27,870 nucleotides of DNA from a virus, in the IMG/VR virus record IMGVR_UViG_3300020595_000154, positions 1 to 27,870 of that record. One strand, written 5' to 3'. Under the pieces are notes generated by a model. That model had not been told where the DNA came from and made no database searches. It was given only the letters and a program-made list of their open reading frames with translations. This document shows positions 2,946 through 22,206 of the stretch, one piece after another. Both the position numbers and the translations under genes were made by a program. The number at the start of each line of letters is the position of its first letter. Positions within the stretch are counted from its first letter, which is position 1.

Positions 2946-4520
2946 CTAAAGCAACCAACTAATATCTTCTTGTTTCCCATTTATTTCTTGGGTATATGGG
3001 TTATCAATACTATTAGCATTATAACCACCCTTCCAAGATACTTTATTAGTAGCAATACCATTTAGTGCTGCTTTACTCATGTCTAAATGTTGTTGACTAA
3101 ATTTAAATGATGTATCTCTCATAAACATACCCATACCAAACGACATAACTAAATCATCATTATAACCTTGTTGGGCTTCAGCACGACCATTTTTCCACAT
3201 GAATACTTTCATTTCTTCAAGCAAACGTTTTGATTGAATTGTAACTGATTTATCATTAACGTATTCTTGGAGTTTACCTATTATTAAAGGTCTAACTCTT
3301 GATGTCATACTAAAACCAGGAACCATTTTACTCGTATCCATATATTTATCAAAATACGAATTTGCTTTTGTAGCATCACTTTTAGATGAGTAATAAAGGT
3401 TAGTATATCCTCTATCAATAATAGTTTGGATTGTTGCCCAACCAATTGAAGCATTTTCTACTACTAACATAGCTTCATTGTATTCAGTAGCAATACCAAC
3501 TAATAAATGTCCATATTCTTTGGTACCTAATTGTCCTTTGTATTCAGCAACTTGGGTATTCGTTTCAATGTCAATAATATGGAACGCAGAATAGTCTTTC
3601 CCATCGCCACGAGCAACATCTGCAACCACAATGTAGGTTCTAGAATAGTCTGCTGGCTCCCAAATCCATAAATTTTGGTCAGCACCTCGTTTTTCGAGGG
3701 GATCTTTAATATAAGTTTGCTCATAAAATTCTAAGTATTCAGCATAGAACACAGTATCACCAGATGTATTAAAATCACAATCACACTCTTGTGCTGCCAT
3801 TCTGGGGTCACCTAGTAATTCATCTTGTCTATCTCTCCATGCTTGATCACGTTCTGGGTGGACATACCATGGAAGTTTAATAGGTAAGAAATCGTTTTCT
3901 TGATTTTCTGCTCTAACCCATGTTTGATGAAACCAATTACCTGTACCATAAGGGGTAGAAAGTGCTATACATCCACCACCAGTAGCTAGTGTTTGTTGAG
4001 CTGAAGCCCATATTTCACCAATGTTATCAATAAAAGCAGCCTCATCAATTAATAGAAGGGAAACTGCTTCTGATCTACCAGCATCACTTGAGGCTGATGT
4101 TGCTTTAATTTGTGATCCATTACTTAATCGTAATGTTAATTTGTTATTTTCAGGTGCATCTATTTTAAGCCATGAAGGTAAATTTTCATACATGAATTTA
4201 ACCTTTGTAACCATGTTTTTAGCTGTATCCTGCTTTGTCGCAATACAAAGTACGTTTTTATCTTTATGGAATAACATTAACCATAAAGAATAACCTGCAC
4301 CTAAGGTTGAAATACCTAGCTGTCTAGATTTTAATACTACAGAATATGGATTTTCTTGGAATAACTTTAATACTTTATCTTGGAATGGATATAGATTAAA
4401 TGGAATACGTCCACGTTGAGGATGCTGTATATAACAGTACTTACGCATAAAATGAACTGGGTCAGCAGCACATTTAACATACTCTTGTTGAATGATTTTT
4501 CTTAAATTTTGTTCAGCCAT
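2946..4520 (-). CDS. terL: Large terminase subunit (T4 gp17-like packaging ATPase/nuclease)
   Basis: This 524-residue protein is the DNA-packaging motor: an N-terminal ATPase translocates DNA through the portal and a C-terminal RNase H-fold nuclease cuts the concatemer. Visible motifs in order are a Walker A-type loop KSRQLGIST (64-72), Walker B LLLIDEAAF (155-163), coupling motif ALSTP (186-190), and nuclease acids at D301 in ADVARGDGKD, E355 in VVENASIG and D455/D456 in YNDDLVMS. The Walker loop lacks the Lys found in T4 (SRQLGKTT). K64 before the loop probably substitutes, a known deviant form in terminases. It is shorter than T4 gp17 (610), mainly at the N-terminus. Its ATG overlaps the preceding stop as TAATG. 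Confidence 0.97.
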   Translation of the reverse strand: MAEQNLRKIIQQEYVKCAADPVHFMRKYCYIQHPQRGRIPFNLYPFQDKVLKLFQENPYSVVLKSRQLGISTLGAGYSLWLMLFHKDKNVLCIATKQDTAKNMVTKVKFMYENLPSWLKIDAPENNKLTLRLSNGSQIKATSASSDAGRSEAVSLLLIDEAAFIDNIGEIWASAQQTLATGGGCIALSTPYGTGNWFHQTWVRAENQENDFLPIKLPWYVHPERDQAWRDRQDELLGDPRMAAQECDCDFNTSGDTVFYAEYLEFYEQTYIKDPLEKRGADQNLWIWEPADYSRTYIVVADVARGDGKDYSAFHIIDIETNTQVAEYKGQLGTKEYGHLLVGIATEYNEAMLVVENASIGWATIQTIIDRGYTNLYYSSKSDATKANSYFDKYMDTSKMVPGFSMTSRVRPLIIGKLQEYVNDKSVTIQSKRLLEEMKVFMWKNGRAEAQQGYNDDLVMSFGMGMFMRDTSFKFSQQHLDMSKAALNGIATNKVSWKGGYNANSIDNPYTQEINGKQEDISWLL

Positions 4521-5116
4521 TATTTACCTATTTTCCAATATAGGCGGCCTGATACTATAGGGAAGAAATCTTTATCTACTCCTAAACCAAAACCGTATAC
4601 ATTTCTTTTTTTATTAACGTACATTAATTCACCGCTAATATAATTTATTGGCGATTCATTTTGTACGGGGTTTATCATCCCTCCTACCGAAATACCTCCG
4701 AAAAATTCCCTTTTGTAGAGGTAAGTAGTATTAGTAATTGTAGTTGTTGGGATGAATATGTTGGATTGAACATCTCTGAATGAAATTAAGTTTCTAGTAA
4801 TCGTATCGTTTACAATAATAGAACCTAGTGTATCTAACTGAATAGTATCAGTATAGAAATACTTTGCATAATAATCTTTTAGTACCGAAACCGTATCAAT
4901 TGGTGTAGAGAATGTATCAATATTAACTACTACTTTCTCAATTATTTGAGGAACGTACTCTGTTTGTTCTACTTTAACAGTATCCCATTTAGTTACTACT
5001 TCAGTAATAACTTTTGGTTCCACAGGAGGTGTAGAAGAGCAGCCTCGTTGAAAAAACAATAGGGCTGCTAATACTACAACTAGTAGAGTTTGTATATTTT
5101 TAAAGTAACCCTTCAA
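4520..5116 (-). CDS. Membrane-anchored envelope protein, possible spanin-like lysis protein
   Basis: This 198-residue protein has one N-terminal hydrophobic segment (about 9-23, TLLVVVLAALLFF) followed at once by RGCSSTPP. The Cys resembles a lipoprotein acceptor, although the residues before it (Q-R-G) are a poor lipobox, so a signal anchor is equally likely. The body has many short alternating Thr/Asp/Val/Ile strands (DTV, DTF, TDTIQLDT). The C-terminal third (NVYGFGLGVDKDFFPIVSGRLYWKIGK, aromatic ends) is beta-rich and could sit against the outer membrane. Position beside a coiled-coil gene and before the terminase fits a lysis or spanin role, but this is inference. It overlaps the upstream gene by 17 nt and the terminase by one base. 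Confidence 0.85.
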   Translation of the reverse strand: MKGYFKNIQTLLVVVLAALLFFQRGCSSTPPVEPKVITEVVTKWDTVKVEQTEYVPQIIEKVVVNIDTFSTPIDTVSVLKDYYAKYFYTDTIQLDTLGSIIVNDTITRNLISFRDVQSNIFIPTTTITNTTYLYKREFFGGISVGGMINPVQNESPINYISGELMYVNKKRNVYGFGLGVDKDFFPIVSGRLYWKIGK

Positions 5117-5459: not shown

Positions 5460-5472
5460 TTATTATAAATAT
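5460..5472 (-). promoter_or_regulatory. Promoter-like motif upstream of the terminase unit
   Basis: The coding strand reads ATATTTATAATAA, directly after the stop codon of the NadR-like kinase gene and ending 12 nt before the ATG at 5447. It is identical to the copies at 1035, 2930 and 24809. The start-codon context TTATAATGAA recurs before the acidic protein gene at 13878. Confidence 0.55.
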
Positions 5473-6002
5473 TATAGAGAGATCACCTCTAGCATTTGTT
5501 CAATGCGTTCTTCGGTGCTACCTGATAATGTGTTAAGATTTTTAAAGCGATGTTTATTAGCATCAATAAGATTACTAATAGTAAAATCAATTAAATCTCT
5601 ATAATCTACATTAGTTTCTCTAATACCATTATCTTCAATCTCTACCCCTACAGGTGAGACATAAAAGATGTAATCGTATTCTCTAATAAAACGTTTAGCA
5701 TAATTTATAAACTCTTCCTTATCAACATAATTCATAGATTTAGATGCTTTAGCAAATGCCATAACATCAACTACAGTTCTATCTGTGATTACATTTTCGC
5801 ACATTAGTTCACTAGTACGCTCAGCTAAAAATACTGTTTGACCTTTTAATGTTGAATCAGTATTCAATGGAATACCTTGAGCCATTAATTCTTTAGAACG
5901 TTCTGTTCTAAACATGTAGTCCTTAAATTCATCTCGCTCCTTAAGAGCGTTAACGAGTGTAGTTTTACCCACACTCATTGTTCCGCATAATCCTATTTTC
6001 AT
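5472..6002 (-). CDS. P-loop kinase of the NadR/AAA_28 type
   Basis: This 176-residue protein begins MKIGLCGTMSVGKTTLVNAL, a Walker A loop at 7-15 (GTMSVGKTT) right at the N-terminus. Further signs are VITDRTVVDVMAF near 70-82, a Walker B/substrate-acid segment of the nucleoside-kinase class, and DYIFYVSPVG near 109-118. The layout matches the ribosylnicotinamide-kinase-like domain of NadR (AAA_28), which phosphorylates nicotinamide riboside. Related small kinases with other substrates exist, so the substrate is uncertain. Its ATG overlaps the stop of the cupin gene by 4 nt, and it closes the FAD-oxidoreductase cassette. A link to NAD supply is attractive but unproven. Confidence 0.85.
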   Translation of the reverse strand: MKIGLCGTMSVGKTTLVNALKERDEFKDYMFRTERSKELMAQGIPLNTDSTLKGQTVFLAERTSELMCENVITDRTVVDVMAFAKASKSMNYVDKEEFINYAKRFIREYDYIFYVSPVGVEIEDNGIRETNVDYRDLIDFTISNLIDANKHRFKNLNTLSGSTEERIEQMLEVISL

Positions 6003-6343
6003 GACCTTCCGTATATATCGTCTAACCTTACTATATCATCTTCACCGAAATAAGTCCCGGTTTGTACTTCTATGAATATACAATCTTCTTCGTGGGGATT
6101 CCAGATATTGTGTTTCATTCCTTGAGGAATGTAGATAGCATCACCCGCTTCTTTATCATATTCAAAATCATCAAGTTTTACAACTGCTTTACCTTGCACC
6201 AAGACCCAACGTTCAGAGCGCTGGTCATGGTATTGGTATGAGAGTCGTCCACCTGGTTTTACTGTGATTTGTTTTACTTTACAGTAATCTGATTCTAGAA
6301 GATTTTCAAATTTACCCCAAGGTCTTTCTTCGGTATAATTCAT
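5999..6343 (-). CDS. Cupin, mannose-6-phosphate isomerase type II-like
   Basis: This 114-residue single cupin domain matches the C-terminal half of type II mannose-6-phosphate isomerases. Diagnostic segments are ERPWGKFENL (5-14), YQYHDQRSERWVLVQGKA with the metal-binding Gln/His/Glu set (about 36-53), IPQGMKHNIWNP (second cupin motif) and QTGTYFGEDDIVRLDDIYGR at the end. Known members interconvert mannose-6-phosphate and fructose-6-phosphate, or serve in GDP-mannose synthesis when fused to a guanylyltransferase, which is absent here. Similar short cupins occur in other T4-like phages, where the role is not settled. It sits between a small unknown gene (TAATG overlap) and the NadR-like kinase (ATGA overlap). 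Confidence 0.9.
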   Translation of the reverse strand: MNYTEERPWGKFENLLESDYCKVKQITVKPGGRLSYQYHDQRSERWVLVQGKAVVKLDDFEYDKEAGDAIYIPQGMKHNIWNPHEEDCIFIEVQTGTYFGEDDIVRLDDIYGRS

Positions 6344-6636: not shown

Positions 6637-7992
6637 TTAATAGTTTTCAAAAAATTCTGGGTATTCTTCTGGGAAATGTGCCTCTAAAATAGAATCTACA
6701 ACATAAATTCCTTGTGCCCCTGATACTGTAATACCACGAGCTGATAGAGCATCACCTACAAAGTGAACATTATCATAATCGATTAATGATAGATCACTAT
6801 AATTTACTAATGGTTCAGGTGATAGATACTTGACTTCAGGAATGTAAACACCCCAATCATCTTCTAATGTTGGAAATACTTTTTTCATATCATCAATAAA
6901 ATCATCAATGTATGTATAGTAACCTTGGAATGCTTCTCTTACTTCATCCATCTCACTGATAGTAACAGCGCTTACGTTCTCACCTTCAGATGTTGTAGAT
7001 GGAGTACGTGTTGGGCTATAATATAAACCTGTACCATCTTTATTTACTTTAGATACTAAATCTCTAGACCAAGTAAATGGTTCGTCGATACCTTGAACTT
7101 CCATCAAGATACCAAAATTGGTCATATCATTTCTGAATGATTCGTCTTTTTTAGCGTGTCCATTGTACGAATGATCTCCATACGTTTCTTCAACGGCAAC
7201 ATAAGCTGCGTTGTTGTTAGTACAGAAGGAACGTAACGAGACGCCTTCTTCTTCGAATTTTCTGTATAATTTAAAATCATAACTTACATCAATAAGTTTC
7301 TGGAAGTGTTTTTGTGGTGCCTCAAATCGCACCCCAATTTGTACTGGTTTAGGTTCAGTAGGTAATTTATAATCTGTAGCCAATTGCTTACCAAAGTCAA
7401 TTCCTGATTTGCCTACGGCAAACATTAGGCGGTCATAATTAATAGGCCAATTTTTAGGATTGATGAATGATTCCTCTTCTCCTATAAATAATTCTTGAGC
7501 ATCAAAATCAATTGAAGTTACTTTAGTCTCCCAAATAAACTCAACACCATTATCAACTAAAAAGTCATACCAATTTTTACCAATCTCGTGTAGGTAATCT
7601 GTACCAACGTGCCATACTGGGAATAAACGCAAACCGAAATATGGTTTAATAAAATCTGGTTCCGCAACTGGATTTGAACATTGTACTTCCTCTGGTTTAG
7701 GGTGGAAACGTTTAAAATTGTTGATTACTTCATCAAACAATTCCATTGCTTTTTCCTCACCACAATACTTAGACATATGACCTCCAATTGCGGTGTGGTA
7801 AGTTAATTTACCATCACTCCAACCACCAGCACCTAAAAATCCAGTCATTACTTCTGAATATGGTCTGCGATATGGATCTTTACCCATATCAATGATTGTA
7901 ATATTTTCTCCTGGGAATCCGTTGTCTACTAGCTTAGTTGCAGCATTAACACCTGCTACACCAGCGCCTACGATTACTAGTTTTTCTGCCAT
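6637..7992 (-). CDS. FAD-dependent oxidoreductase (COG2509-like dehydrogenase)
   Basis: This 451-residue flavoprotein has an N-terminal Rossmann fold with LVIVGAGVAGVNAATKL (dinucleotide loop G9-x-G11-x-x-G14) and the ribose-binding acid at the end of strand two (IIDMG, D35). The segment GFLGAGGWSDGKLTYHTAIG (51-70) matches the G-A-G-x-x-S-D-G-K-L signature I associate with the uncharacterised COG2509 dehydrogenases. A closing FAD motif, HFVGDALSARGITVSGAQGI, lies near 410-430. It looks complete, with no truncation. The substrate is unknown. It heads the cassette with the DGPA protein, cupin and NadR-like kinase, behind a strong host-type promoter candidate. A full-length enzyme of this type is unusual cargo for a phage. 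Confidence 0.9.
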   Translation of the reverse strand: MAEKLVIVGAGVAGVNAATKLVDNGFPGENITIIDMGKDPYRRPYSEVMTGFLGAGGWSDGKLTYHTAIGGHMSKYCGEEKAMELFDEVINNFKRFHPKPEEVQCSNPVAEPDFIKPYFGLRLFPVWHVGTDYLHEIGKNWYDFLVDNGVEFIWETKVTSIDFDAQELFIGEEESFINPKNWPINYDRLMFAVGKSGIDFGKQLATDYKLPTEPKPVQIGVRFEAPQKHFQKLIDVSYDFKLYRKFEEEGVSLRSFCTNNNAAYVAVEETYGDHSYNGHAKKDESFRNDMTNFGILMEVQGIDEPFTWSRDLVSKVNKDGTGLYYSPTRTPSTTSEGENVSAVTISEMDEVREAFQGYYTYIDDFIDDMKKVFPTLEDDWGVYIPEVKYLSPEPLVNYSDLSLIDYDNVHFVGDALSARGITVSGAQGIYVVDSILEAHFPEEYPEFFENY

Positions 7993-12678: not shown

Positions 12679-13878
12679 TTATTTGATTTTATTCCACATT
12701 GGGAATACTACTGATTCGTTAAGGTTTTCCTTAACTTCTTCGTCTTTAGCTTCTTCTAAACCCATTTCAGCTTCCATTTCAGTAGTGTTAACGTTTACAT
12801 CCATGTCATCCATTTCAGATACGTTTCCAGCTACGTGTGAACGAGTAAAGTAAGTAATTGTGTTGCCAATTTGATCCATTAATTTCTCATCACCAAAGGC
12901 TTGAGCAGCTTCTTGAGCTTTCATAAGTAAAGCTTGTACTTCTTCTACATCTTCGCTTTCGCCAGGCATTGAAGCTTTAATATCAACGTCTACTTCTGAT
13001 TCTTCGTCGTCAACTTTAACGTCTACATCTTTTTCGATATCAACATCGATGTCTTCGTTGTCTTCAACTTCAACATCTTCTGCTTCTGATACTTTCATGT
13101 CCTTTAACTTGTCTTCGATATCGTCTTTAGCGTCTTCGAATCCGTCTTTGTAGCCTTCTTGTTCAGCATCTGTACGAGCGTCTTCAAGCATAGCGGCTTT
13201 GATCATTTCTTTTAATTCTGATTTTTTCATTTTATTTGATTTAATTTCTTTAACTTCTTCTTCTTTAAGATCATAGTCTCTTATAATACCACCTAAGTAT
13301 AATTTAGCATCATCAGTTGACATTGCTCTAACTAATTCTCCAACTGCATTTTCAGCACCAAGAGAATCAATGATTTTTTCAGCCATATCAAATGCTTCAT
13401 CATCTAAAGTTTCTTTAATTTGTCCTAAAACTTCTTGCATGTAATCGTCTGTTTCTTTTCTACGTTCCATGTAGTCAGTATCTCCACCCATTTCAGCTTT
13501 TGATTGTTCAGCATCTAACATTGTAAGTTCACCTTGATCAGAGATAGTAGCTACTAAACCACCTTTTTCACTGTTTCTAACTTCATATCCACCTTCAATT
13601 GGTTTGATTCTAAACGAACCACCCCAACCTCTACCGGTACCATATTTAGCATCGTCTTCTGGGGTTTTTTCTGTTGCTTTAGTATCTAATTCGAATGAAT
13701 TTCCGTCTATATCACCTACGGTGTAGGCCATGTAAGTTGAAAATCTATCACCTTCAGCATCTTCTTCAGTAAAGGCATCAGCAATATATTGTGCTAAGAA
13801 CTTTACCTCTTGGCCATTAAGTTCTTCTTTTAATAGCTTACCTTCAGCTAAATATTTTGTTAAATCGAAATTGTTCAT
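12679..13878 (-). CDS. Acidic protein, possible scaffold or internal head protein
   Basis: This 399-residue protein falls into visible parts. The N-terminus MNNFDLTKYLAEGKLLKE resembles T4 capsid-targeting peptides, ending in L-A-E before a small residue. A compact domain follows to about 125, then a helical region to 210. At 217 MKKSELKEMIKAAMLED begins as if a second protein were fused. Residues 265-300 are almost pure Asp/Glu/Val repeats (DIDVDIEKDVDVKVDDEE). The end is ESVVFPMWNKIK. Overall very acidic, as expected of a scaffold/core protein that balances basic partners; several strongly basic proteins are encoded beside it. Family not recognised. It is alone between two promoter-like motifs. 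Confidence 0.85.
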   Translation of the reverse strand: MNNFDLTKYLAEGKLLKEELNGQEVKFLAQYIADAFTEEDAEGDRFSTYMAYTVGDIDGNSFELDTKATEKTPEDDAKYGTGRGWGGSFRIKPIEGGYEVRNSEKGGLVATISDQGELTMLDAEQSKAEMGGDTDYMERRKETDDYMQEVLGQIKETLDDEAFDMAEKIIDSLGAENAVGELVRAMSTDDAKLYLGGIIRDYDLKEEEVKEIKSNKMKKSELKEMIKAAMLEDARTDAEQEGYKDGFEDAKDDIEDKLKDMKVSEAEDVEVEDNEDIDVDIEKDVDVKVDDEESEVDVDIKASMPGESEDVEEVQALLMKAQEAAQAFGDEKLMDQIGNTITYFTRSHVAGNVSEMDDMDVNVNTTEMEAEMGLEEAKDEEVKENLNESVVFPMWNKIK

Positions 13879-13915: not shown

Positions 13916-14209
13916 TTATTTTTTGGACTGATACGTTCCTTTCTTGTAGGACGCTTTTTTCGTGTTTTTTACAAATTGTTTTCCTTTTTTACCTCCCGCT
14001 TTTTTCTTGCGAGCTGATGCTGCTCTTTCTTTTTTAGTTAAGGATTGAGCTTTTTTCTTTGGTAGACAACGAGAAGGATTTTTCTTGTTCTTCATAGTAC
14101 CACAAGGGCCGGTAATATTACCAGCCGTATCTATTCGAACCCAGTTTTCTTTTTTAAACCAGTCGCGTAGTGATTCGTCTATGATTTCCTTTACTCTGTC
14201 TCGTGTCAT
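13916..14209 (-). CDS. Small strongly basic protein with two-cysteine motif
   Basis: This 97-residue protein has an amphipathic N-terminal helix (MTRDRVKEIIDESLRDWF) and a C-terminal two thirds built almost wholly of Lys, Arg, Ser, Ala and Gly. The centre has WVRIDTAGNITGPCGTMKNK and RCLPKKKAQSLTKKERAA. From memory this GPCGTMKN...RCLPK block is recurrent in T4-like marine phages and annotated as hypothetical. Its high positive charge suggests nucleic-acid contact or a packaged protein. The start overlaps the stop of the preceding gene (TAATG). A related two-Cys basic tail occurs at the end of that preceding gene, and another at the end of the 207-residue protein at 8878. Confidence 0.85.
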   Translation of the reverse strand: MTRDRVKEIIDESLRDWFKKENWVRIDTAGNITGPCGTMKNKKNPSRCLPKKKAQSLTKKERAASARKKKAGGKKGKQFVKNTKKASYKKGTYQSKK

Positions 14210-15258
14210 TACCCTTTCATTTGCCCTTTACACACCTTAACAGCGCGGCCTGAGAGGTAAGCAGATGATTTTTCACCAGCTGCCATTCTTTTTTTACGGT
14301 ATGCTTTACCTTTTGCGCAAAGTTCCTCGTTTAGGTTTTTACCTAATTCAATGGTTTCCATTATTTCTTTAATCATACCACCAATATTAAATTGATTTAG
14401 ATTAACAGATTTAAAGTTACCATCTCCATCTTGCATTCTTAATACAGCATCATCTGAGGAGACTACTTTATATTCTTCGCCTTTATAATTAACTACTTTA
14501 CCTTGTAATTTAGCAAATACATCTTTAGCTATTTTTTCACCGTGACCTTTTTTAGGTTTAGATTCTTCAATCTGTTCGCTAGCAATCTTTTTGATCATGT
14601 CTTTAACTCGATCCATTGCTGTTTTAGCTGAGTCTTTAGCTTTATCTTGTGTTTTTTCGTCTTTATAGTAGATACCTGTGTTGTATTCTTCTAATTGGCT
14701 TCTTAATAATGATTTCCAACTAACCATTATTTCACCTACCCCTTTTATAAATTCAGGATTTTTTAAATCACCTTTAAATTTACTAAATAATGCTCTTAAA
14801 TCTTCTTTAAATTCAGCTACTGCTCCTGTTGGGTTGAATGGTTCTGAATCTAGATCTTCTGGTTCTCCTCTTCTAAAACCACTATAAGCTCCTTCTAATG
14901 TTTTAGGCTTTTTAACCCAGCTTTTCCATGTCTCATATTTTGGAGAAAATGGGGTATAATCAAGTGCTAATTGTAATTCTCTAGATTGGTCTTTAAGAGG
15001 GTAAATTCGAATAGCTTCCTCTTTATCTTCATCTACATAAAAAGTACCTCCAGGAAGTACGATAATATATGCACCTTCTGCTCCTAAAAATACTCCTTCG
15101 TTTGCGTGGTGTAAAACACCAGGTGCTTTAATGCCTGAGCCAAATGATTCTGTGTATTTTATTTCTGCTGGTTCTGTTAGAATAAAATCAGGAGAGCGTC
15201 TTGAATTTTCTTTTACTGGTTTAGAAAAGAATTCTTGTATTTGTTTTAAGTCTTCCAT
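14209..15258 (-). CDS. Unknown protein with basic two-cysteine C-terminus
   Basis: This is a 349-residue protein. The N-terminal half (about 35-110) looks beta-rich (GVLHHANEGVFLGAEGAYIIVLPGGTFYV in two pieces). The middle (150-240) is helical and charged. A small SH3-like strand pattern, VVNYKGEEYKVVSSDDAVLRM, lies near 255-275. The C-terminus (about 313-349) is LCAKGKAYRKKRMAAGEK followed by SSAYLSGRAVKVCKGQMKG, a basic two-Cys tail I recall from other marine T4-like phage proteins. The combination could be a structural protein with a DNA-binding tail. It is coupled by TAATG overlaps on both sides. Family not recognised as a whole. Confidence 0.85.
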   Translation of the reverse strand: MEDLKQIQEFFSKPVKENSRRSPDFILTEPAEIKYTESFGSGIKAPGVLHHANEGVFLGAEGAYIIVLPGGTFYVDEDKEEAIRIYPLKDQSRELQLALDYTPFSPKYETWKSWVKKPKTLEGAYSGFRRGEPEDLDSEPFNPTGAVAEFKEDLRALFSKFKGDLKNPEFIKGVGEIMVSWKSLLRSQLEEYNTGIYYKDEKTQDKAKDSAKTAMDRVKDMIKKIASEQIEESKPKKGHGEKIAKDVFAKLQGKVVNYKGEEYKVVSSDDAVLRMQDGDGNFKSVNLNQFNIGGMIKEIMETIELGKNLNEELCAKGKAYRKKRMAAGEKSSAYLSGRAVKVCKGQMKG

Positions 15259-15853: not shown

Positions 15854-16426
15854 TTACTTCTTTAAAGACTTAAGGTACTCAATAGTTTCTCCAATGCTTT
15901 TAGTAGCTAATTCTTTATTAACACCACCTTTCCAATTCTGCACCTCACCTGCTTCAGAAATAAATCCTTGATTTGAATCAGTAAGTGCTTCTTCTAGGTA
16001 TTGTTCTACACCTTCAATCATTTTATCAAGTGATGAATTATCTAATTCTTTTTTCCATTCATCAAATAAACCTTCTAATTTAAGATCCATTTCAAATTTT
16101 GCTTGACAATTAAAACAACGTCTAAAGAATTTATATACAGGGTCATCTAAACGAGCTTTCATTACTTTATCACAGCTTGGACAAAACATAGGCATTAATG
16201 CTTCTTTTGCTTTATCTAGCCTGGTGATATTTTGTTTTAAACCATCTTTAATAGTCCATTGACGGCCATCTTCAGTCCAAACATCACCTTCTTCGCGATG
16301 AATTTTTTGTTTTGTATAACCAACACCACCAGTAGTACGCTCATCTGCTTTACCAGACATTACATTACGTACACGTTGAACGTCTTTTTTAGAAAACTCT
16401 TTTTTTAGAACATTGTCTTGACTCAT
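15854..16426 (-). CDS. Zinc-ribbon protein conserved in T4-like phages
   Basis: This 190-residue protein has a four-cysteine zinc ribbon in the centre: MFCPSCDKVMKARLDD (C82, C85) and FFRRCFNCQAKFEMDLKLEG (C104, C107). The C-terminal helical region ends SEAGEVQNWKGGVNKELATK. From memory, T4-like cyanophages encode a shorter relative with the same order: ribbon, helix, then a W-x-G-G-V segment. Its function is not established. Zinc ribbons of this shape often bind nucleic acid or protein partners. The N-terminal 75 residues are Lys/Arg/Asp rich and may be an added DNA-binding arm. It is the last gene of the kinase/fusion unit and overlaps the 923-residue gene by ATGA. Confidence 0.88.
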   Translation of the reverse strand: MSQDNVLKKEFSKKDVQRVRNVMSGKADERTTGGVGYTKQKIHREEGDVWTEDGRQWTIKDGLKQNITRLDKAKEALMPMFCPSCDKVMKARLDDPVYKFFRRCFNCQAKFEMDLKLEGLFDEWKKELDNSSLDKMIEGVEQYLEEALTDSNQGFISEAGEVQNWKGGVNKELATKSIGETIEYLKSLKK

Positions 16427-19194
16427 AAACCTAATTTATCTAATTCTGTGTTAACTTGATTAGCGGATGTATATAAAATACCTATACCACCAGCATCTCT
16501 CCACTGTTGGATATTATCTTCCCTATCATCAATTAAAATATGATTAGGAGCAGCATAATTTTTCTTTAAATATGATCTGGATAGGGTTAATTTAGTACTT
16601 GGAGTTTTATCTCTTCTCCATAAACGTTTTCCTATCTTAGATAATTCACTACGTGAAGGTGAAGATAATAATTCATGATCAAATTGAGATGCTCTGTTGT
16701 AAAGTGCTTCCCCACCAGGCATCCAAGACATACCACGCCAAAAACCTACACCGGCTTTATCTATAGCTTCCCAGAAACCTGTTGATCCATGTTTTGCTTC
16801 AAATTCACGAGGCATCATACCTGTTAAATCTTTGAATTGTTGATCAAAATCAACTAACACCCCGTCCATATCGAGGTAAATTTTATAGTCCATAACCTTT
16901 TCTTCATTTTCGAATACCGGTAAAGATAATGCCTTTCTTCTGCTTCTCCAAAGATTTAGTATGATTTCTTTATCTTCTTTTGCCTCAAGACCAGGAGCAA
17001 TATCTAAGTAATTTTGGATAACATCTTTAAATGGTTTTCTAGTTTTTTTAGCTTTTAAATATAAACCTTGAAGCATAGCATCTACTTCTTTTTCAAGCTT
17101 ATAGTAATCGCTTTGTGGTAGTATCTTAACTTTATTGATTAAATCACGGAGTTGAATATCATCATCCATGTATTTACCTGTTCTTAAATTATCTCCGGTT
17201 TGAGTTAAATGCTCAATTTCATGTCTAATAACATCTGAGACATCAGCTGAGATTTTAGACCATGCTTGGGGTAGTACTTTTGGGTTTACTTTAAATAGGG
17301 TAGCTATAAATGGGAATTTATCTTCTTCTTCACCACTATTTGAAGTTCCATCTACCTCGTATCCGTCTACTTTTTTATCAAATTCAACCATACCAACGTA
17401 ATTGAATTCAATTTCTCTACCTTTACCATCTACATCATCTATATCAATATCAACGAATGATTTTTTGGGCATTGGTTTCTTTTTAGAATCCTCAACCCAT
17501 TTATTGATTGTAGCTTTAGTTAGTTTAGTAGTTAATGAATCGTAAGCACCTTCAGCCATTAATTCACGAGCAAACTGGTTTAAGCCAAATGGATCTTTAC
17601 CTAAATTCTTATCAAAGCCTTCGCTTACTACAGGAGATAACATTATTACCTCATCTGAGGTGCTCATTTTCCAGTCTCCAGGAAGCTTAGATAAATTTTT
17701 GTTAATAAATGCTTGATATAATTTACCACGTTTGGAATCTGGGTTAGCGTATCTACCTTCTGTATCATCTTTAGCGTAGAATTTAACTAAATCTAAAGTA
17801 GTAGAATCGATCTCGTTTACTCTGTTTATCAATTGAATGATAATATCTGTAAGAGTAGCTAATATTTTATATTGTTCACCTTTGTTTATAGCATCGTCTC
17901 CACCTTCTTCAGTAGTAAAGTCTACACGAAGTGTAGTCATCGCTAATTCATCTTCAGGTTTATCGATTGAAGCATCAACTGTAATTCTATATCTAGTTCT
18001 AGATTCAGGAGAGATAACCTCAATAGCAGGTAACATATCGTAATACTCTACTGTATCCTCGTCTTGTTTTCTAATTTTACGCTCGATTTCTCTAGCTATT
18101 ACATCAATGCGTGAGGGTCTCCATTCTAGCTTTGCAGCTGATGCGTCTCCGATTTCGTTTAAGCTATCAGTCCAATTTCTAAACGTCATTGTACCTTTTA
18201 AGTTAGCTTCAGCTTCAATATCGTTTAGGTAATCGTCTTCCTGAGTATTTGTAGTTGCGATACCTTCTAATCTACCTTCCAGATTTTGAATGTGGTGGAT
18301 CATTTCATGCGCATAACTACGTGCTATATCTTTGGGATGACGCCCTTCAGTATATAGGACAATAACCTTGTTGATTGGATCATAGTACGCCGTCTTTCCG
18401 AAGAAATCCCGAGCGTTTTCAGTATCACCATCTACAAATTCGAGTCCAGGTAAAGGTTCAATATTATACCCTTTATCGATCATATGTTGAGTTAACTGAT
18501 CGATTTTACCTTGAATATCTATATCTTTAGAATACGAAGCGTTTTCGTTTACTTTTCCGTATCCTGAACCAAATGGGGCAGCTTTACCATCATCGGGATT
18601 ATCTGTTTCTTTAACTGCAGGTCTTAAGATATTAAATATTTCATCTTTTTCTTCTACTTGAGAAGGTATAAATTGGGTAAATGCTTCTCTGTTTCCTGCT
18701 AATAATGCTTTACGAGCATTAGTACCGCTCATACCAGCATTAGAAGTTGTGATTACTTTAACTTCAACATTATTGTATTTATCTTCTTTTTTATCAATAG
18801 CGGCTGTACGTTGAGCTATATCAGATAAATCTTCGTCTTTACCATCTCTAGCACCTAAAATCCAATATATAGTATCATCTGGGTTATTTCCCGCATAGCT
18901 ATAAACAGCACCAATTGGGGGTTTTGTAGCAGGTTGTATTTCTACCTTCATAGGTAGATAATTTTGATAGATTTCCCATACTAAAATTGATTCAGCTTGT
19001 TCAATACCATCTCTAACACCACTACCTACTAGTACTATTAACTTATCTATCTCTGGGTATTGTTTTAGGGCTTCTTCTACGACTTGAAAATGACCTGATG
19101 TTGGTGGTTTAAAACCTCCAGCATAGATACCTATTACTTCTTGTTTATCCTCATTAAGGATACCGTCTACTAAATGTTTAGTTAATTCGTTCAT
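16423..19194 (-). CDS. Multi-domain fusion: nucleotidyltransferase, two metallopeptidase-like domains, HAD phosphatase
   Basis: This is a 923-residue soluble protein. Domain 1 (about 20-195) is a cytidylyltransferase-like nucleotidyltransferase with IYAGGFKPPTSGHF (HxGH variant, 24-36) and MSGTNARKAL (155-164). Domain 2 (about 220-345) has AHEMIHH (H296-E297-xx-H300) and a downstream DIEAEANLKG acid, the zincin-type layout. A linker domain (350-545) is unrecognised. Domain 3 (about 546-735) has RHEIEHL (H658-E659-xx-H662) and EKEVDAMLQGLY as third-ligand candidate. Domain 4 (770-923) is a HAD hydrolase with LDMDGVLVDFD (D775, D777) and ILIDDREDN (D889, D890), like 5'(3')-deoxyribonucleotidases. 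Both flanking genes overlap by ATGA. Substrates unknown; the frame is intact throughout. Confidence 0.9.
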   Translation of the reverse strand: MNELTKHLVDGILNEDKQEVIGIYAGGFKPPTSGHFQVVEEALKQYPEIDKLIVLVGSGVRDGIEQAESILVWEIYQNYLPMKVEIQPATKPPIGAVYSYAGNNPDDTIYWILGARDGKDEDLSDIAQRTAAIDKKEDKYNNVEVKVITTSNAGMSGTNARKALLAGNREAFTQFIPSQVEEKDEIFNILRPAVKETDNPDDGKAAPFGSGYGKVNENASYSKDIDIQGKIDQLTQHMIDKGYNIEPLPGLEFVDGDTENARDFFGKTAYYDPINKVIVLYTEGRHPKDIARSYAHEMIHHIQNLEGRLEGIATTNTQEDDYLNDIEAEANLKGTMTFRNWTDSLNEIGDASAAKLEWRPSRIDVIAREIERKIRKQDEDTVEYYDMLPAIEVISPESRTRYRITVDASIDKPEDELAMTTLRVDFTTEEGGDDAINKGEQYKILATLTDIIIQLINRVNEIDSTTLDLVKFYAKDDTEGRYANPDSKRGKLYQAFINKNLSKLPGDWKMSTSDEVIMLSPVVSEGFDKNLGKDPFGLNQFARELMAEGAYDSLTTKLTKATINKWVEDSKKKPMPKKSFVDIDIDDVDGKGREIEFNYVGMVEFDKKVDGYEVDGTSNSGEEEDKFPFIATLFKVNPKVLPQAWSKISADVSDVIRHEIEHLTQTGDNLRTGKYMDDDIQLRDLINKVKILPQSDYYKLEKEVDAMLQGLYLKAKKTRKPFKDVIQNYLDIAPGLEAKEDKEIILNLWRSRRKALSLPVFENEEKVMDYKIYLDMDGVLVDFDQQFKDLTGMMPREFEAKHGSTGFWEAIDKAGVGFWRGMSWMPGGEALYNRASQFDHELLSSPSRSELSKIGKRLWRRDKTPSTKLTLSRSYLKKNYAAPNHILIDDREDNIQQWRDAGGIGILYTSANQVNTELDKLGL

Positions 19195-19991
19195 GAACGT
19201 AAGAAATTCTGTAATTTGCTTTGAGCCTCGTCTTTAGATACAGTGTAAGAAAGTATATCTTCTAAAAATTCATCATTTAACATATTTTGAATCTCAGCAT
19301 TTAACTCAGCTTTTTGCTTATCAGATTTAGCCTGTTGTGCAGGTGTTTTAGGTTTAGTACCTTGAGGTGCGAATGGTTCTAGATATGTTTTAAGAATATC
19401 TTCAACATCCTTTATCTTATTACCTTCTAATGTGTTAGCTACTGCTACAAAATTACTGCCAAATAAATCAGCGTATGGTTTTAAATTATCTGTTACACCT
19501 TTCCAAGTACGCATTACAATAGCAGGTGCTAAACTTCTATCTTCACCACCTGATTTTTCGAATCTATCCTGATTTTGTTTGAGTGAACGTTCTAAATCAG
19601 TATAAACATAAAGCATAAATACATCATATCCAGCTTCCTCTAATTGATCTTTAAGTAGTGAAGTTTGTTTAAGTGAGGCAGCAGTACCATCTAATACAAA
19701 TGATTGCTTGCCAGCTATTACATTTTGTAATTCACCTTTGAATTCTTTATTAGCAGCAGCCATTGCTACAGCTTGCTTACTTCTTTCTTCAGGTGTTGCG
19801 TTTTTAAGATCTAGGGTAACGTTAGCTTGTTTAAGCTTATCAATGAATGTGTTATCAAGATTCATTATCTTTAAACCACCCAGATCCAACCCCTTTAGGA
19901 TTGTACCTTTACCAGCACCAGGAGCACCGGCTAATATGATAGCTTTTGGTTTGCCTTCCACTTCATTTAATAATTGTACTAACGATATCAT
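19191..19991 (-). CDS. Zeta-toxin-like P-loop kinase
   Basis: This 266-residue protein carries KAIILAGAPGAGKGTILKGL with a Walker A loop at 22-30 (GAPGAGKGT), followed by KIMNLDNTFIDKL (substrate-side Asp), SFVLDGTAAS (Walker B-like), and an Arg-rich lid (LERSLKQNQDRFEKSGGEDR). This is the layout of zeta-toxin/AAA_33 kinases, which phosphorylate UDP-sugars or other small molecules. A C-terminal extension (about 215-266) is charged and helical. The N-terminus MISLVQLLNEVEGKPK reads like a short tag ending L-N-E. It is first in its unit, behind a strong promoter candidate, and overlaps the 923-residue fusion by ATGA. No antitoxin-like gene lies beside it, so a toxin-antitoxin role is not suggested. 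Confidence 0.88.
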   Translation of the reverse strand: MISLVQLLNEVEGKPKAIILAGAPGAGKGTILKGLDLGGLKIMNLDNTFIDKLKQANVTLDLKNATPEERSKQAVAMAAANKEFKGELQNVIAGKQSFVLDGTAASLKQTSLLKDQLEEAGYDVFMLYVYTDLERSLKQNQDRFEKSGGEDRSLAPAIVMRTWKGVTDNLKPYADLFGSNFVAVANTLEGNKIKDVEDILKTYLEPFAPQGTKPKTPAQQAKSDKQKAELNAEIQNMLNDEFLEDILSYTVSKDEAQSKLQNFLRS

Positions 19992-21750: not shown

Positions 21751-22206
21751 CTATTTTTGCGACTCAAAGTCTTTTGTGAAGAACTTACCTAGAATATTAT
21801 CGTTAAAGAATTCATTTGGATTTTCTAATACCTCGTAAATAAACTGTGCCTTTGTTTCCTCGTAAGTTAATAACTTTTTTGAGGTAGCCAAAGTTAAGAT
21901 TTCACGTTTGAAATTCTCTATTGGTTCGTTCTCTAATAAATTAGTTAAGATTTTATTTGAACCCCAGTAGGTTTGCCAGTCTGATTCTTTTACTACTTGT
22001 TTGTATGATGGTTTTCTACCTTTAGTACCTTCATACAATGCTAAATCTTTTTTAGTTAATTTAGCTTTACGAGTAAATTTAACGAATTTTTTACCAATAT
22101 AGGCTTTACCACTTGGGATGTGGGTAATTCTATATACGAAACCGAATGTAGAAGGAGGGAAATCCTCTAATGAGGTCATTTCCTCACCTTTGTATAACCA
22201 GTTCAT
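21751..22206 (-). CDS. GIY-YIG endonuclease-like protein
   Basis: This 151-residue protein has FGFVYRITHIPSGKAYIGKK at 21-40, i.e. the GIY (as F-V-Y) and YIG strands of the GIY-YIG nuclease fold, followed by SDWQTYWGSNK (about 74-84), FKREILTLA, and an acid in TYEETKAQFIYEV that could bind metal. From memory, T4-like phages including cyanophages carry a close family with the same SDW..YWGS signature. It may be a free-standing homing endonuclease or a domesticated repair nuclease. It sits tightly packed in its operon (4-nt and 2-nt gaps), which argues for a resident gene rather than a recent mobile insertion. Confidence 0.88.
   Translation of the reverse strand: MNWLYKGEEMTSLEDFPPSTFGFVYRITHIPSGKAYIGKKFVKFTRKAKLTKKDLALYEGTKGRKPSYKQVVKESDWQTYWGSNKILTNLLENEPIENFKREILTLATSKKLLTYEETKAQFIYEVLENPNEFFNDNILGKFFTKDFESQK

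What the first reader, a model, noticed from the sequence alone, without database searches (positions are those of the whole stretch)
16423..19991. 923-residue four-enzyme fusion paired with a zeta-like kinase
One intact frame joins a nucleotidyltransferase (GGFKPPTSGH, MSGTNARKAL), two separate HExxH domains (H296/E297/H300 and H658/E659/H662), an unknown linker domain, and a HAD phosphatase with DMDGVLVDFD. It is translationally coupled to a P-loop kinase before it and a zinc-ribbon protein after it. Kinase, nucleotide transfer and dephosphorylation on one transcript suggest a nucleotide or cofactor remodelling pathway, with proteolysis perhaps used to release the domains or to attack a host protein. 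I know of the single domains in phages but not of this architecture.
Basis: partly seen in the sequence, partly recalled or inferred. Interest (0 to 1): 0.8.

Follow-up and report, generated by a model that had tools for sequence, protein, structure and literature searches.

The report
Phage cargo polyprotein with shuffled enzymes
A marine T4-like phage makes a string of unrelated enzymes as one protein whose joints all carry the cutting signal of the phage's own head protease, so it is probably packed into the virus head, cut into separate enzymes and injected into the host with the DNA; relatives shuffle the enzymes freely.

Summary
In detail: one 923-aa frame joins a cytidylyltransferase/NMNAT-like domain, two zincins and an NT5C-like phosphatase. 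The 'unknown linker' looks like a weak GNAT fold. The frame overlaps a zeta-like kinase gene and a zinc-ribbon gene by ATGA.

The reading changes on comparison. Across about 160 viral loci this is a combinatorial cassette array. The nucleotidyltransferase always comes first and, where fused, the phosphatase last. Between them zincins, zinc ribbons, ART-, ParB- and GNAT-like domains, plastocyanin and superoxide dismutase come and go (63 architectures in 82 complete ORFs). Nearly every joint carries [L/I/V/M]-x-E: 26/26 contexts before zincin 1, 16/16 before zincin 2, 34/36 before another module, against a 10-12% background. That is T4 gp21's cleavage motif, and it recurs in this phage's own capsid protein and gp21-like protease. 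The kinase, most of these polyproteins and neighbouring genes start with T4-like capsid-targeting peptides ending in the same site.

Best reading: a packaged polyprotein, cut by the prohead protease during head maturation and ejected as separate early-infection enzymes. This is a protease-cleavable relative of 'polyvalent proteins', not a single nucleotide pathway. Cleavage and packaging are inferred; no virion proteomics was found for this group.

The parts
16426..19194 (-). 923-aa cargo polyprotein, whole ORF (stop at 16423-16425)
19150..19194 (-). residues 1-15 MNELTKHLVDGILNE|, putative capsid-targeting peptide ending in a prohead-protease-type site
   Evidence: compared with T4 CTS (PMC9026906) and cyanophage cytidyltransferase MKKFSAFLNE|A
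18607..19149 (-). residues 16-196, cytidylyltransferase/NMNAT-like nucleotidyltransferase (GGFKPPTSGH, MSGTNAR); fixed first module
18544..18606 (-). residues 197-217, GKAAPFGSGY linker module, bounded by VKE196| and VNE217|
18154..18543 (-). residues 218-347, zincin 1 (H296 E297 H300, E327/E329), the most conserved module, bounded by VNE217| and LNE347|
17620..18153 (-). residues 348-525, mobile domain with GNAT-like topology, bounded by LNE347| and VSE525|
17551..17619 (-). residues 526-548, GFDKNLGKDPFGLNQFARELMAE| linker; disordered in the model, ends at E548
16909..17550 (-). residues 549-762, zincin 2 (H658 E659 H662, E703), bounded by MAE548| and VFE762|
16426..16908 (-). residues 763-923, HAD phosphatase of NT5C type; fixed last module when fused, a separate gene in some relatives
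19191..19991 (-). zeta-like P-loop kinase with CTS-like start MISLVQLLNE|; start/stop overlap with the polyprotein gene
15854..16426 (-). zinc-ribbon protein coupled downstream; no CTS-like start (serves as a control)
12679..13878 (-). 399-aa protein with start MNNFDLTKYLAE|GKLLKE|, the CTS type that replaces the kinase's own start in L018, L026, L031
15258..15686 (-). 142-aa protein with CTS-like start ...YLQE|ANLSE|
14209..15258 (-). 349-aa protein with a C-terminal exchangeable module after NLNE| (ELCAKGKAYRKKRM...KVCKG)

Best explanation
It is a virion cargo polyprotein. A T4-like phage of Bacteroidota encodes it next to its head genes, so it is probably made late. An N-terminal capsid-targeting peptide takes the chain into the prohead core. 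The phage's gp21-type prohead protease, cutting after [L/I/V/M]-x-E, then removes that peptide and splits the chain at the joints into a nucleotidyltransferase (20 kDa), zincin 1 (15 kDa), a GNAT-like domain (20 kDa), zincin 2 (25 kDa) and a nucleotidase (18.5 kDa). These enter the new host with the DNA and act before phage genes are expressed. The kinase and neighbouring CTS-bearing proteins belong to the same cargo. Because every joint is a protease site, modules can be gained, lost and reordered without breaking the others, so the array evolves as a cassette board. Shown: modular array, conserved joint motif, matching sites in this phage's MCP and protease, CTS-like starts. Inferred: cleavage, packaging, ejection, timing and the action of each enzyme.
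For: Breakpoints supported by 10 or more alignment ends lie within 3 aa of [LIVMF]xE in 81% of cases vs 12% expected; the controls [LIVMF]xD and [LIVMF]xK are near background. Counting distinct sequence contexts, the motif sits at the joint before zincin 1 in 26/26, zincin 2 16/16, zinc ribbon 19/19, DTY module 34/36, and after the NTase in 32/33; background 10-12%. P2 and codons vary while P1 E is kept, so selection acts on the protein. AF2: zincin 2 is disordered up to E548 and after about residue 763, so the folded limits fall at the sites. 63 architectures in 82 ORFs; order also changes (L257). An overlapping contig, 100% identical over the stretches compared, encodes the gp21-like protease (LTE|GK, VTE|GK) and MCP (LLNE|S, LLE|G, ILE|N, LVTE|I) just beyond the window; six related long contigs and phage immuto agree. 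Kinase starts end in LL[NKR]E| in most homologues listed, and that start is swapped with the CTS type of another gene in L018, L026, L031; the primase and zinc-ribbon controls lack such a start. T4 gp21 motif L/I-X-E and the 10-aa CTS: PMC9026906. NMNAT/cytidylyltransferases found in cyanomyovirus virions: PMC10665884.
Against: No virion proteomics or cleavage data for this phage group were found. 8 of 41 complete polyproteins have no [LIVMF]xE before the NTase, so their targeting is unexplained. Some joints deviate (RRLY module end 7/26, cupredoxin end 3/6). The P3 set (L, I, V, M, F) is broader than T4's L/I. Some LxE sites lie inside domains (E40, E74, E461, E604, E809) and must be shielded by folding. 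The exonuclease, taken as a control, carries an ILE near its start in most homologues. The authors of PMC10665884 caution that soluble proteins can contaminate virions.
Confidence: 0.72

Rival explanations
1. Polyvalent protein processed by its own zincins: the metallopeptidase domains cut at the [LIV]xE joints, in the head or in the new host, to release the other domains.
For: Iyer et al. 2017 propose autoproteolysis for the MPTase domains of polyvalent proteins (PMC5512222). Zincin 1 is the most conserved module here (60-99% identity) and both zincins keep HExxH plus a downstream glutamate.
Against: 24 complete polyproteins with the DTY module and no HExxH have the same joints. The motif is also at the N-termini of single-domain genes and in the MCP and prohead protease. 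Cutting in trans by a zincin from another gene cannot be excluded.
Confidence: 0.12
2. Ordinary intracellular multi-enzyme of phage metabolism (NMN/nucleotide remodelling); the LxE motifs are just linker signatures and nothing is packaged.
For: The NTase, nucleotidase and kinase are all nucleotide enzymes, and immuto's copy is annotated as NadR. The gene follows primase and exonuclease genes.
Against: Partners such as SOD, plastocyanin, ART and ParB do not fit one pathway. Joint motif P1 and P1' are kept while flanks vary. CTS-like starts are shared with neighbouring genes, and the cluster lies beside terminase and portal. Related NTases are found in virions.
Confidence: 0.1
3. The joints are DNA-level recombination scars (short repeats that help module swapping) rather than protein signals.
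For: Modules do recombine, and TTAAATGAA is the commonest codon string at the joints.
Against: The same residues are written with many codon combinations, P2 varies freely, E is nearly fixed, and the same motif marks N-termini and MCP/protease sites where no swapping is involved.
Confidence: 0.05

Closest known systems
Polyvalent proteins of phages and conjugative elements (Iyer et al. 2017, PMC5512222)
   Same: Many unrelated enzymatic domains in one chain, zincin as a hub domain, ART/ParB/GNAT-like partners, rapid domain exchange, predicted injection with the DNA.
   Different: Here every module is bounded by a prohead-protease-type site and the chain starts with a T4-like CTS; a fixed first (NTase) and last (nucleotidase) module; SOD, plastocyanin and zinc-ribbon cassettes. 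In the passages of that paper that I read or searched, release by the prohead protease is not described.
T4 internal proteins IPI-IPIII and Alt with capsid-targeting sequence, cut by gp21 (PMC9026906)
   Same: Short N-terminal peptide ending in L/I-x-E, phage-encoded gp21-type protease, genes near the head genes, probable ejection into the host.
   Different: T4 IPs and Alt are trimmed at their ends; here one chain would be cut into five enzymes plus linkers. T4 gp22/gp67 are cut into several pieces, but these are scaffold that is mostly discarded.
Virion-associated NMNAT/cytidylyltransferase of cyanomyoviruses (S-CREM2 ORF154 and others, PMC10665884)
   Same: Related NTase family (tblastn 27%, E 5e-3 to ACG-2014a), the latter with a CTS-like start MKKFSAFLNE|A.
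   Different: Single enzyme with a short C-terminal extension, no zincins, nucleotidase or cassette array.
Flavobacterium phage immuto gp088 + gp087 (NC_055915)
   Same: Only cultured relative found: NTase + zincin 1 + zincin 2 fused, same gene order and neighbours, gp21 and gp23 homologues.
   Different: The nucleotidase is a separate gene with its own LLE| start; an extra N-terminal domain precedes the NTase; no GNAT-like module.
SPN3US / phiKZ ejection proteins cut at A-x-E or S-x-E (PMC5694885, PMC7411985)
   Same: Ejected head proteins processed by a prohead protease after x-x-E.
   Different: Mainly removal of N-terminal propeptides; no cassette polyprotein described in the passages read.

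Membership tests
Polyvalent proteins | Two or more domains of disparate activity in one polypeptide | tested here: met
Polyvalent proteins | Zincin-like MPTase core: N-terminal helix, three strands, HExxH helix, second helix with Glu | tested here: met
   Zincin 1: helix-strands-HExxH helix-helix in the model, invariant E327/E329, IrrE/Wss1 matches Z 6.6-7.8. Zincin 2 by sequence motif and model; weak structural matches only
Polyvalent proteins | Injected into the host with the DNA | not testable with these tools
   Indirect only: CTS-like starts, location beside head genes, virion-associated homologues in the literature
T4-type internal (CTS) head proteins | Short N-terminal peptide ending in L/I-x-E | tested here: met
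   Window protein ILNE15, kinase LLNE; 33 of 41 complete polyproteins have the motif before the NTase
T4-type internal (CTS) head proteins | Phage encodes a gp21-type prohead protease and a gp23-type capsid with matching sites | tested here: met
   overlapping identical contig; relatives
T4-type internal (CTS) head proteins | Cleavage by the prohead protease and presence in virions | not testable with these tools
   needs mass spectrometry of virions
NMNAT / cytidylyltransferase superfamily | (H/T)xGH and ISGTxxR-type motifs in a nucleotidyltransferase domain | tested here: met
   GGFKPPTSGH and MSGTNAR; PHROG cytidyltransferase 7e-8; PF01467 0.0097 (below gathering score) in the window protein, up to 3.5e-4 in relatives
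NMNAT (NadR-like) as an activity | Makes NAD from NMN | not testable with these tools
   substrate cannot be assigned from sequence
NT5C 5'(3')-deoxyribonucleotidase (HAD) | HAD motifs DxDG, S/T, K, DD and family-level match | tested here: met
   DMDGV, SSPS, K in SYLKKNYA, IDDRE; PHROG 2643 3.6e-21; NT5C PF06941 1.4e-6 in relatives
Zeta toxin kinase | PF06414 above gathering score | tested here: met
   2.3e-16, 60.3 bits vs 22.3
Zeta toxin kinase (toxin-antitoxin system) | Paired epsilon-type antitoxin gene | tested here: inconclusive
   The Pfam and PHROG searches of the neighbouring proteins named none; a short or diverged antitoxin could be missed
GNAT fold (residues 348-525) | GNAT fold with acetyl-CoA loop | tested here: inconclusive
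   Topology fits; Foldseek TacT2 prob 0.98 but E 0.015; VIA Z 5-6 for acetyltransferases and Z 8 for the RNase E DNase-I-like subdomain; model pLDDT 62

The most novel reading that the evidence does not exclude
Marine Bacteroidota T4-like phages use a 'cassette board' for virion cargo: a polyprotein with a fixed first and last enzyme between which any protein module can be inserted if it is flanked by prohead-protease sites. The capsid protease doubles as the polyprotein processing enzyme, so many different ready-made enzymes (proteases, ARTs, nucleotide enzymes, superoxide dismutase, plastocyanin) can be delivered from one gene.
Probability: 0.62. Interest if true: 0.85.

Novelty: new variant of a known kind. 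Interest (0 to 1): 0.75.

Why it matters
If right, T4-like phages of a major group of marine bacteria make viral polyproteins cut by a capsid maturation protease, a strategy familiar from RNA viruses and retroviruses but not, in the literature searched here, described for phage cargo. It gives a simple sequence rule ([LIVM]xE| at domain joints plus a CTS) for finding injected phage proteins and their domain limits in the large unknown fraction of marine phage genomes. It adds metabolic enzymes (SOD, plastocyanin, nucleotidase) to the list of possible injected effectors. It also suggests that a CTS and LxE sites could be used to pack several enzymes per chain into T4-type delivery capsids.

Tried and rejected
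Pfam gave almost nothing for the window protein itself, so relatives and PHROGs were needed. The NAD idea (NadR annotation in immuto plus the 'NAD synthetase' phrog_447 gene at 21751-22206) was set aside: the latter also matches homing-endonuclease families and reads like a GIY-YIG protein. Foldseek on zincin 2 gave no significant match, and the VIA second look only Z of 4.1 or less, though mostly metallopeptidases lead the list; no claim of a particular zincin family is made. The DTY module was not found in any cultured phage, and the RRLY module gave only partial matches in two Pelagibacter phages. Paper searches for prohead-protease-cut polyproteins or for phage SOD/plastocyanin fusions found no precedent in the held library; subscription papers and preprints are not covered.

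Full report
Observation. The window (a 27,870-base IMG/VR viral record) codes on the minus strand for one intact 923-aa frame at 16423-19194. It overlaps the kinase gene before it and the zinc-ribbon gene after it by ATGA. Family searches name the N-terminal domain a cytidyltransferase (PHROG, 7e-8), the C-terminal one a 5'(3')-deoxyribonucleotidase (PHROG, 3.6e-21) and the upstream kinase a Zeta_toxin family member (PF06414, 2.3e-16).

Setting. The gene lies between a primase/exonuclease pair and a terminase/portal pair of a T4-like phage. The only cultured relative found is Flavobacterium phage immuto. It has the same neighbourhood but a separate nucleotidase gene, plus gp21-type protease and gp23-type capsid genes. 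Zincin 1 also occurs on contigs of Flavobacteriales and Winogradskyella MAGs. The host is therefore probably a member of the Bacteroidota (inference).

The domains. Zincin 1 has the helix-strands-HExxH helix-helix arrangement described for polyvalent-protein metallopeptidases (PMC5512222). It aligns with IrrE (Z 7.8, 20% identity) and Wss1-type proteases. Zincin 2 is modelled with pLDDT 81 and keeps RHExEH and a downstream invariant glutamate, but is only distantly like solved zincins. Residues 348-525 have GNAT-like topology in a low-confidence model; they form a separate mobile domain that other members lack or carry elsewhere.

A mosaic. In relatives the same gene is a changing array. The NTase is always first and, when fused, the nucleotidase always last. 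Between them come zincin 1, zincin 2, zinc ribbon, ART-like (one ART-PolyVal PF18760, 1.2e-4), ParB-like and GNAT-like domains, several unnamed basic modules (here called DTY, RRLY, YRAI, FKERV), a plastocyanin (PF00127, 1.5e-14) and an Fe/Mn superoxide dismutase (PF02777, 4.5e-29). Modules without a cited Pfam match are named from my reading of their sequences. I count 63 architectures in 82 complete ORFs. In L257 even the order of the two zincins is reversed.

The joints. Reading the mosaics showed [LIV]xE, most often LNE, at the joints. This was tested in two ways. First, ends of local alignments between 59 non-redundant members were taken as breakpoints: those with at least 10 supporting ends lie within 3 aa of [LIVMF]xE in 81% of cases, against 12% expected, while [LIVMF]xD and [LIVMF]xK are near background. 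Second, for each module the residues just before its start were taken once per distinct context: zincin 1 26/26, zincin 2 16/16, zinc ribbon 19/19, DTY 34/36; after the NTase 32/33; background 10-12%. Most fused nucleotidases have the motif 7-15 aa before DMDG, and most split nucleotidases carry it near their own N-terminus. Codons and the P2 residue vary, so the constraint is on the protein. In the model of zincin 2 the chain is disordered up to E548 and again just after E762, so folded limits and motifs coincide.

Which protease. The motif is that of T4 gp21, L/I-x-E (PMC9026906). A contig 100% identical to the window where compared extends beyond it and encodes this phage's gp21-like protease and gp23-like capsid protein. 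Both carry such sites near their ends (LTE|GK and VTE|GK in the protease; LLNE|S, LLE|G, ILE|N, LVTE|I in the capsid protein). The same holds in six related long contigs and in immuto. That these are the cleavage sites is inferred from position and motif. 24 polyproteins without any HExxH have the same joints, so the internal zincins are not needed to explain them.

Targeting. The kinase starts with MISLVQLL[NKR]E| in most homologues listed. In L018, L026 and L031 this is replaced by the start MxxF(D/N)xKKYLxE|GxLLxE|, which resembles the start of the unrelated 399-aa gene. The polyprotein itself starts with MNxLTKxLVxxILxE| or similar in 33 of 41 complete cases. The primase and zinc-ribbon genes have no such start; the exonuclease has an ILE near its start in most homologues, a reminder that the motif alone can occur by chance. 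A cyanophage homologue of the NTase starts MKKFSAFLNE|A, close in form to a T4 CTS, and NMNAT/cytidylyltransferases have been detected in virions of several cyanomyoviruses (PMC10665884).

Mechanism. The best reading is a cargo polyprotein taken into the prohead core by its CTS, cut there by the prohead protease into enzymes of 15-25 kDa, and ejected into the host with the DNA. What each enzyme does there is inference: the zincins may cut host or defence proteins, and the NTase, nucleotidase and kinase may change nucleotide or cofactor pools early. Free exchange of modules argues against one obligatory pathway.

Relation to known systems. It works like a T4 internal protein in delivery and like a polyvalent protein in content. 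The combination, with protease sites at the module borders, was not found in the held literature. The main gap is the lack of virion proteomics or cleavage data for any member found here. The main internal exceptions are 8 of 41 members without an N-terminal motif and some joints (RRLY and cupredoxin ends) that deviate.

Noticed in passing
L020:3071-6829 and L106, L180, L181 (polyprotein modules); L182-L196 (separate genes): Phage Fe/Mn superoxide dismutase occurs as a module inside cargo polyproteins and as a separate gene with a CTS-like start (MKLMSILTE|AK, MIKMSDILLE|AKG, MKIKDILFE|QK), suggesting virion-packaged SOD in many aquatic phages.
   Followed up: partly
L019, L020, L102-L109, L115, L119: Plastocyanin/azurin-like cupredoxin module in the same polyproteins, in at least five contexts.
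   Followed up: partly
window 21751-22206; immuto gp100: Labelled 'NAD synthetase' (phrog_447, and in immuto's record) but also matches homing-endonuclease families and begins like a GIY-YIG domain (FVYRITHIPSGKAYIGKKF); the NAD label is doubtful.
   Followed up: no
L116, L126, L136-L139, L144, L146, L162, L165, L168, L169, L172: A second array family without zincins (start M[AE][YF][KR]YKLxE|), sharing the DTY module and ending in ...YVQKGSGLEVKKLF, with LxE at its joints.
   Followed up: partly
window 14209-15258, C-terminus; L145, L257: C-terminal module E(L)C.KGKAY.KRR.AAGEKSSAYLSGRAVKVCKG follows LNE/ITE and is attached to different proteins, perhaps another exchangeable cargo tail.
   Followed up: no
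NC_055915 gp077, gp076: gp077, annotated as cob(I)alamin adenosyltransferase, starts MADNFNLRSFLTE|N...LLKE|G, and gp076 starts MENFDLKKFLVE|N...ILKE|N: both look like CTS-bearing head proteins.
   Followed up: partly
window 4520-5116: 198-aa protein with a lipobox-like start (LLFFQRGCSS), possibly a spanin, next to the terminase gene.
   Followed up: no
window 5472-6343 and 6637-7992: Thymidylate-kinase-like, cupin-like and FAD-dehydrogenase-like genes lie between the cargo genes and terminase.
   Followed up: no
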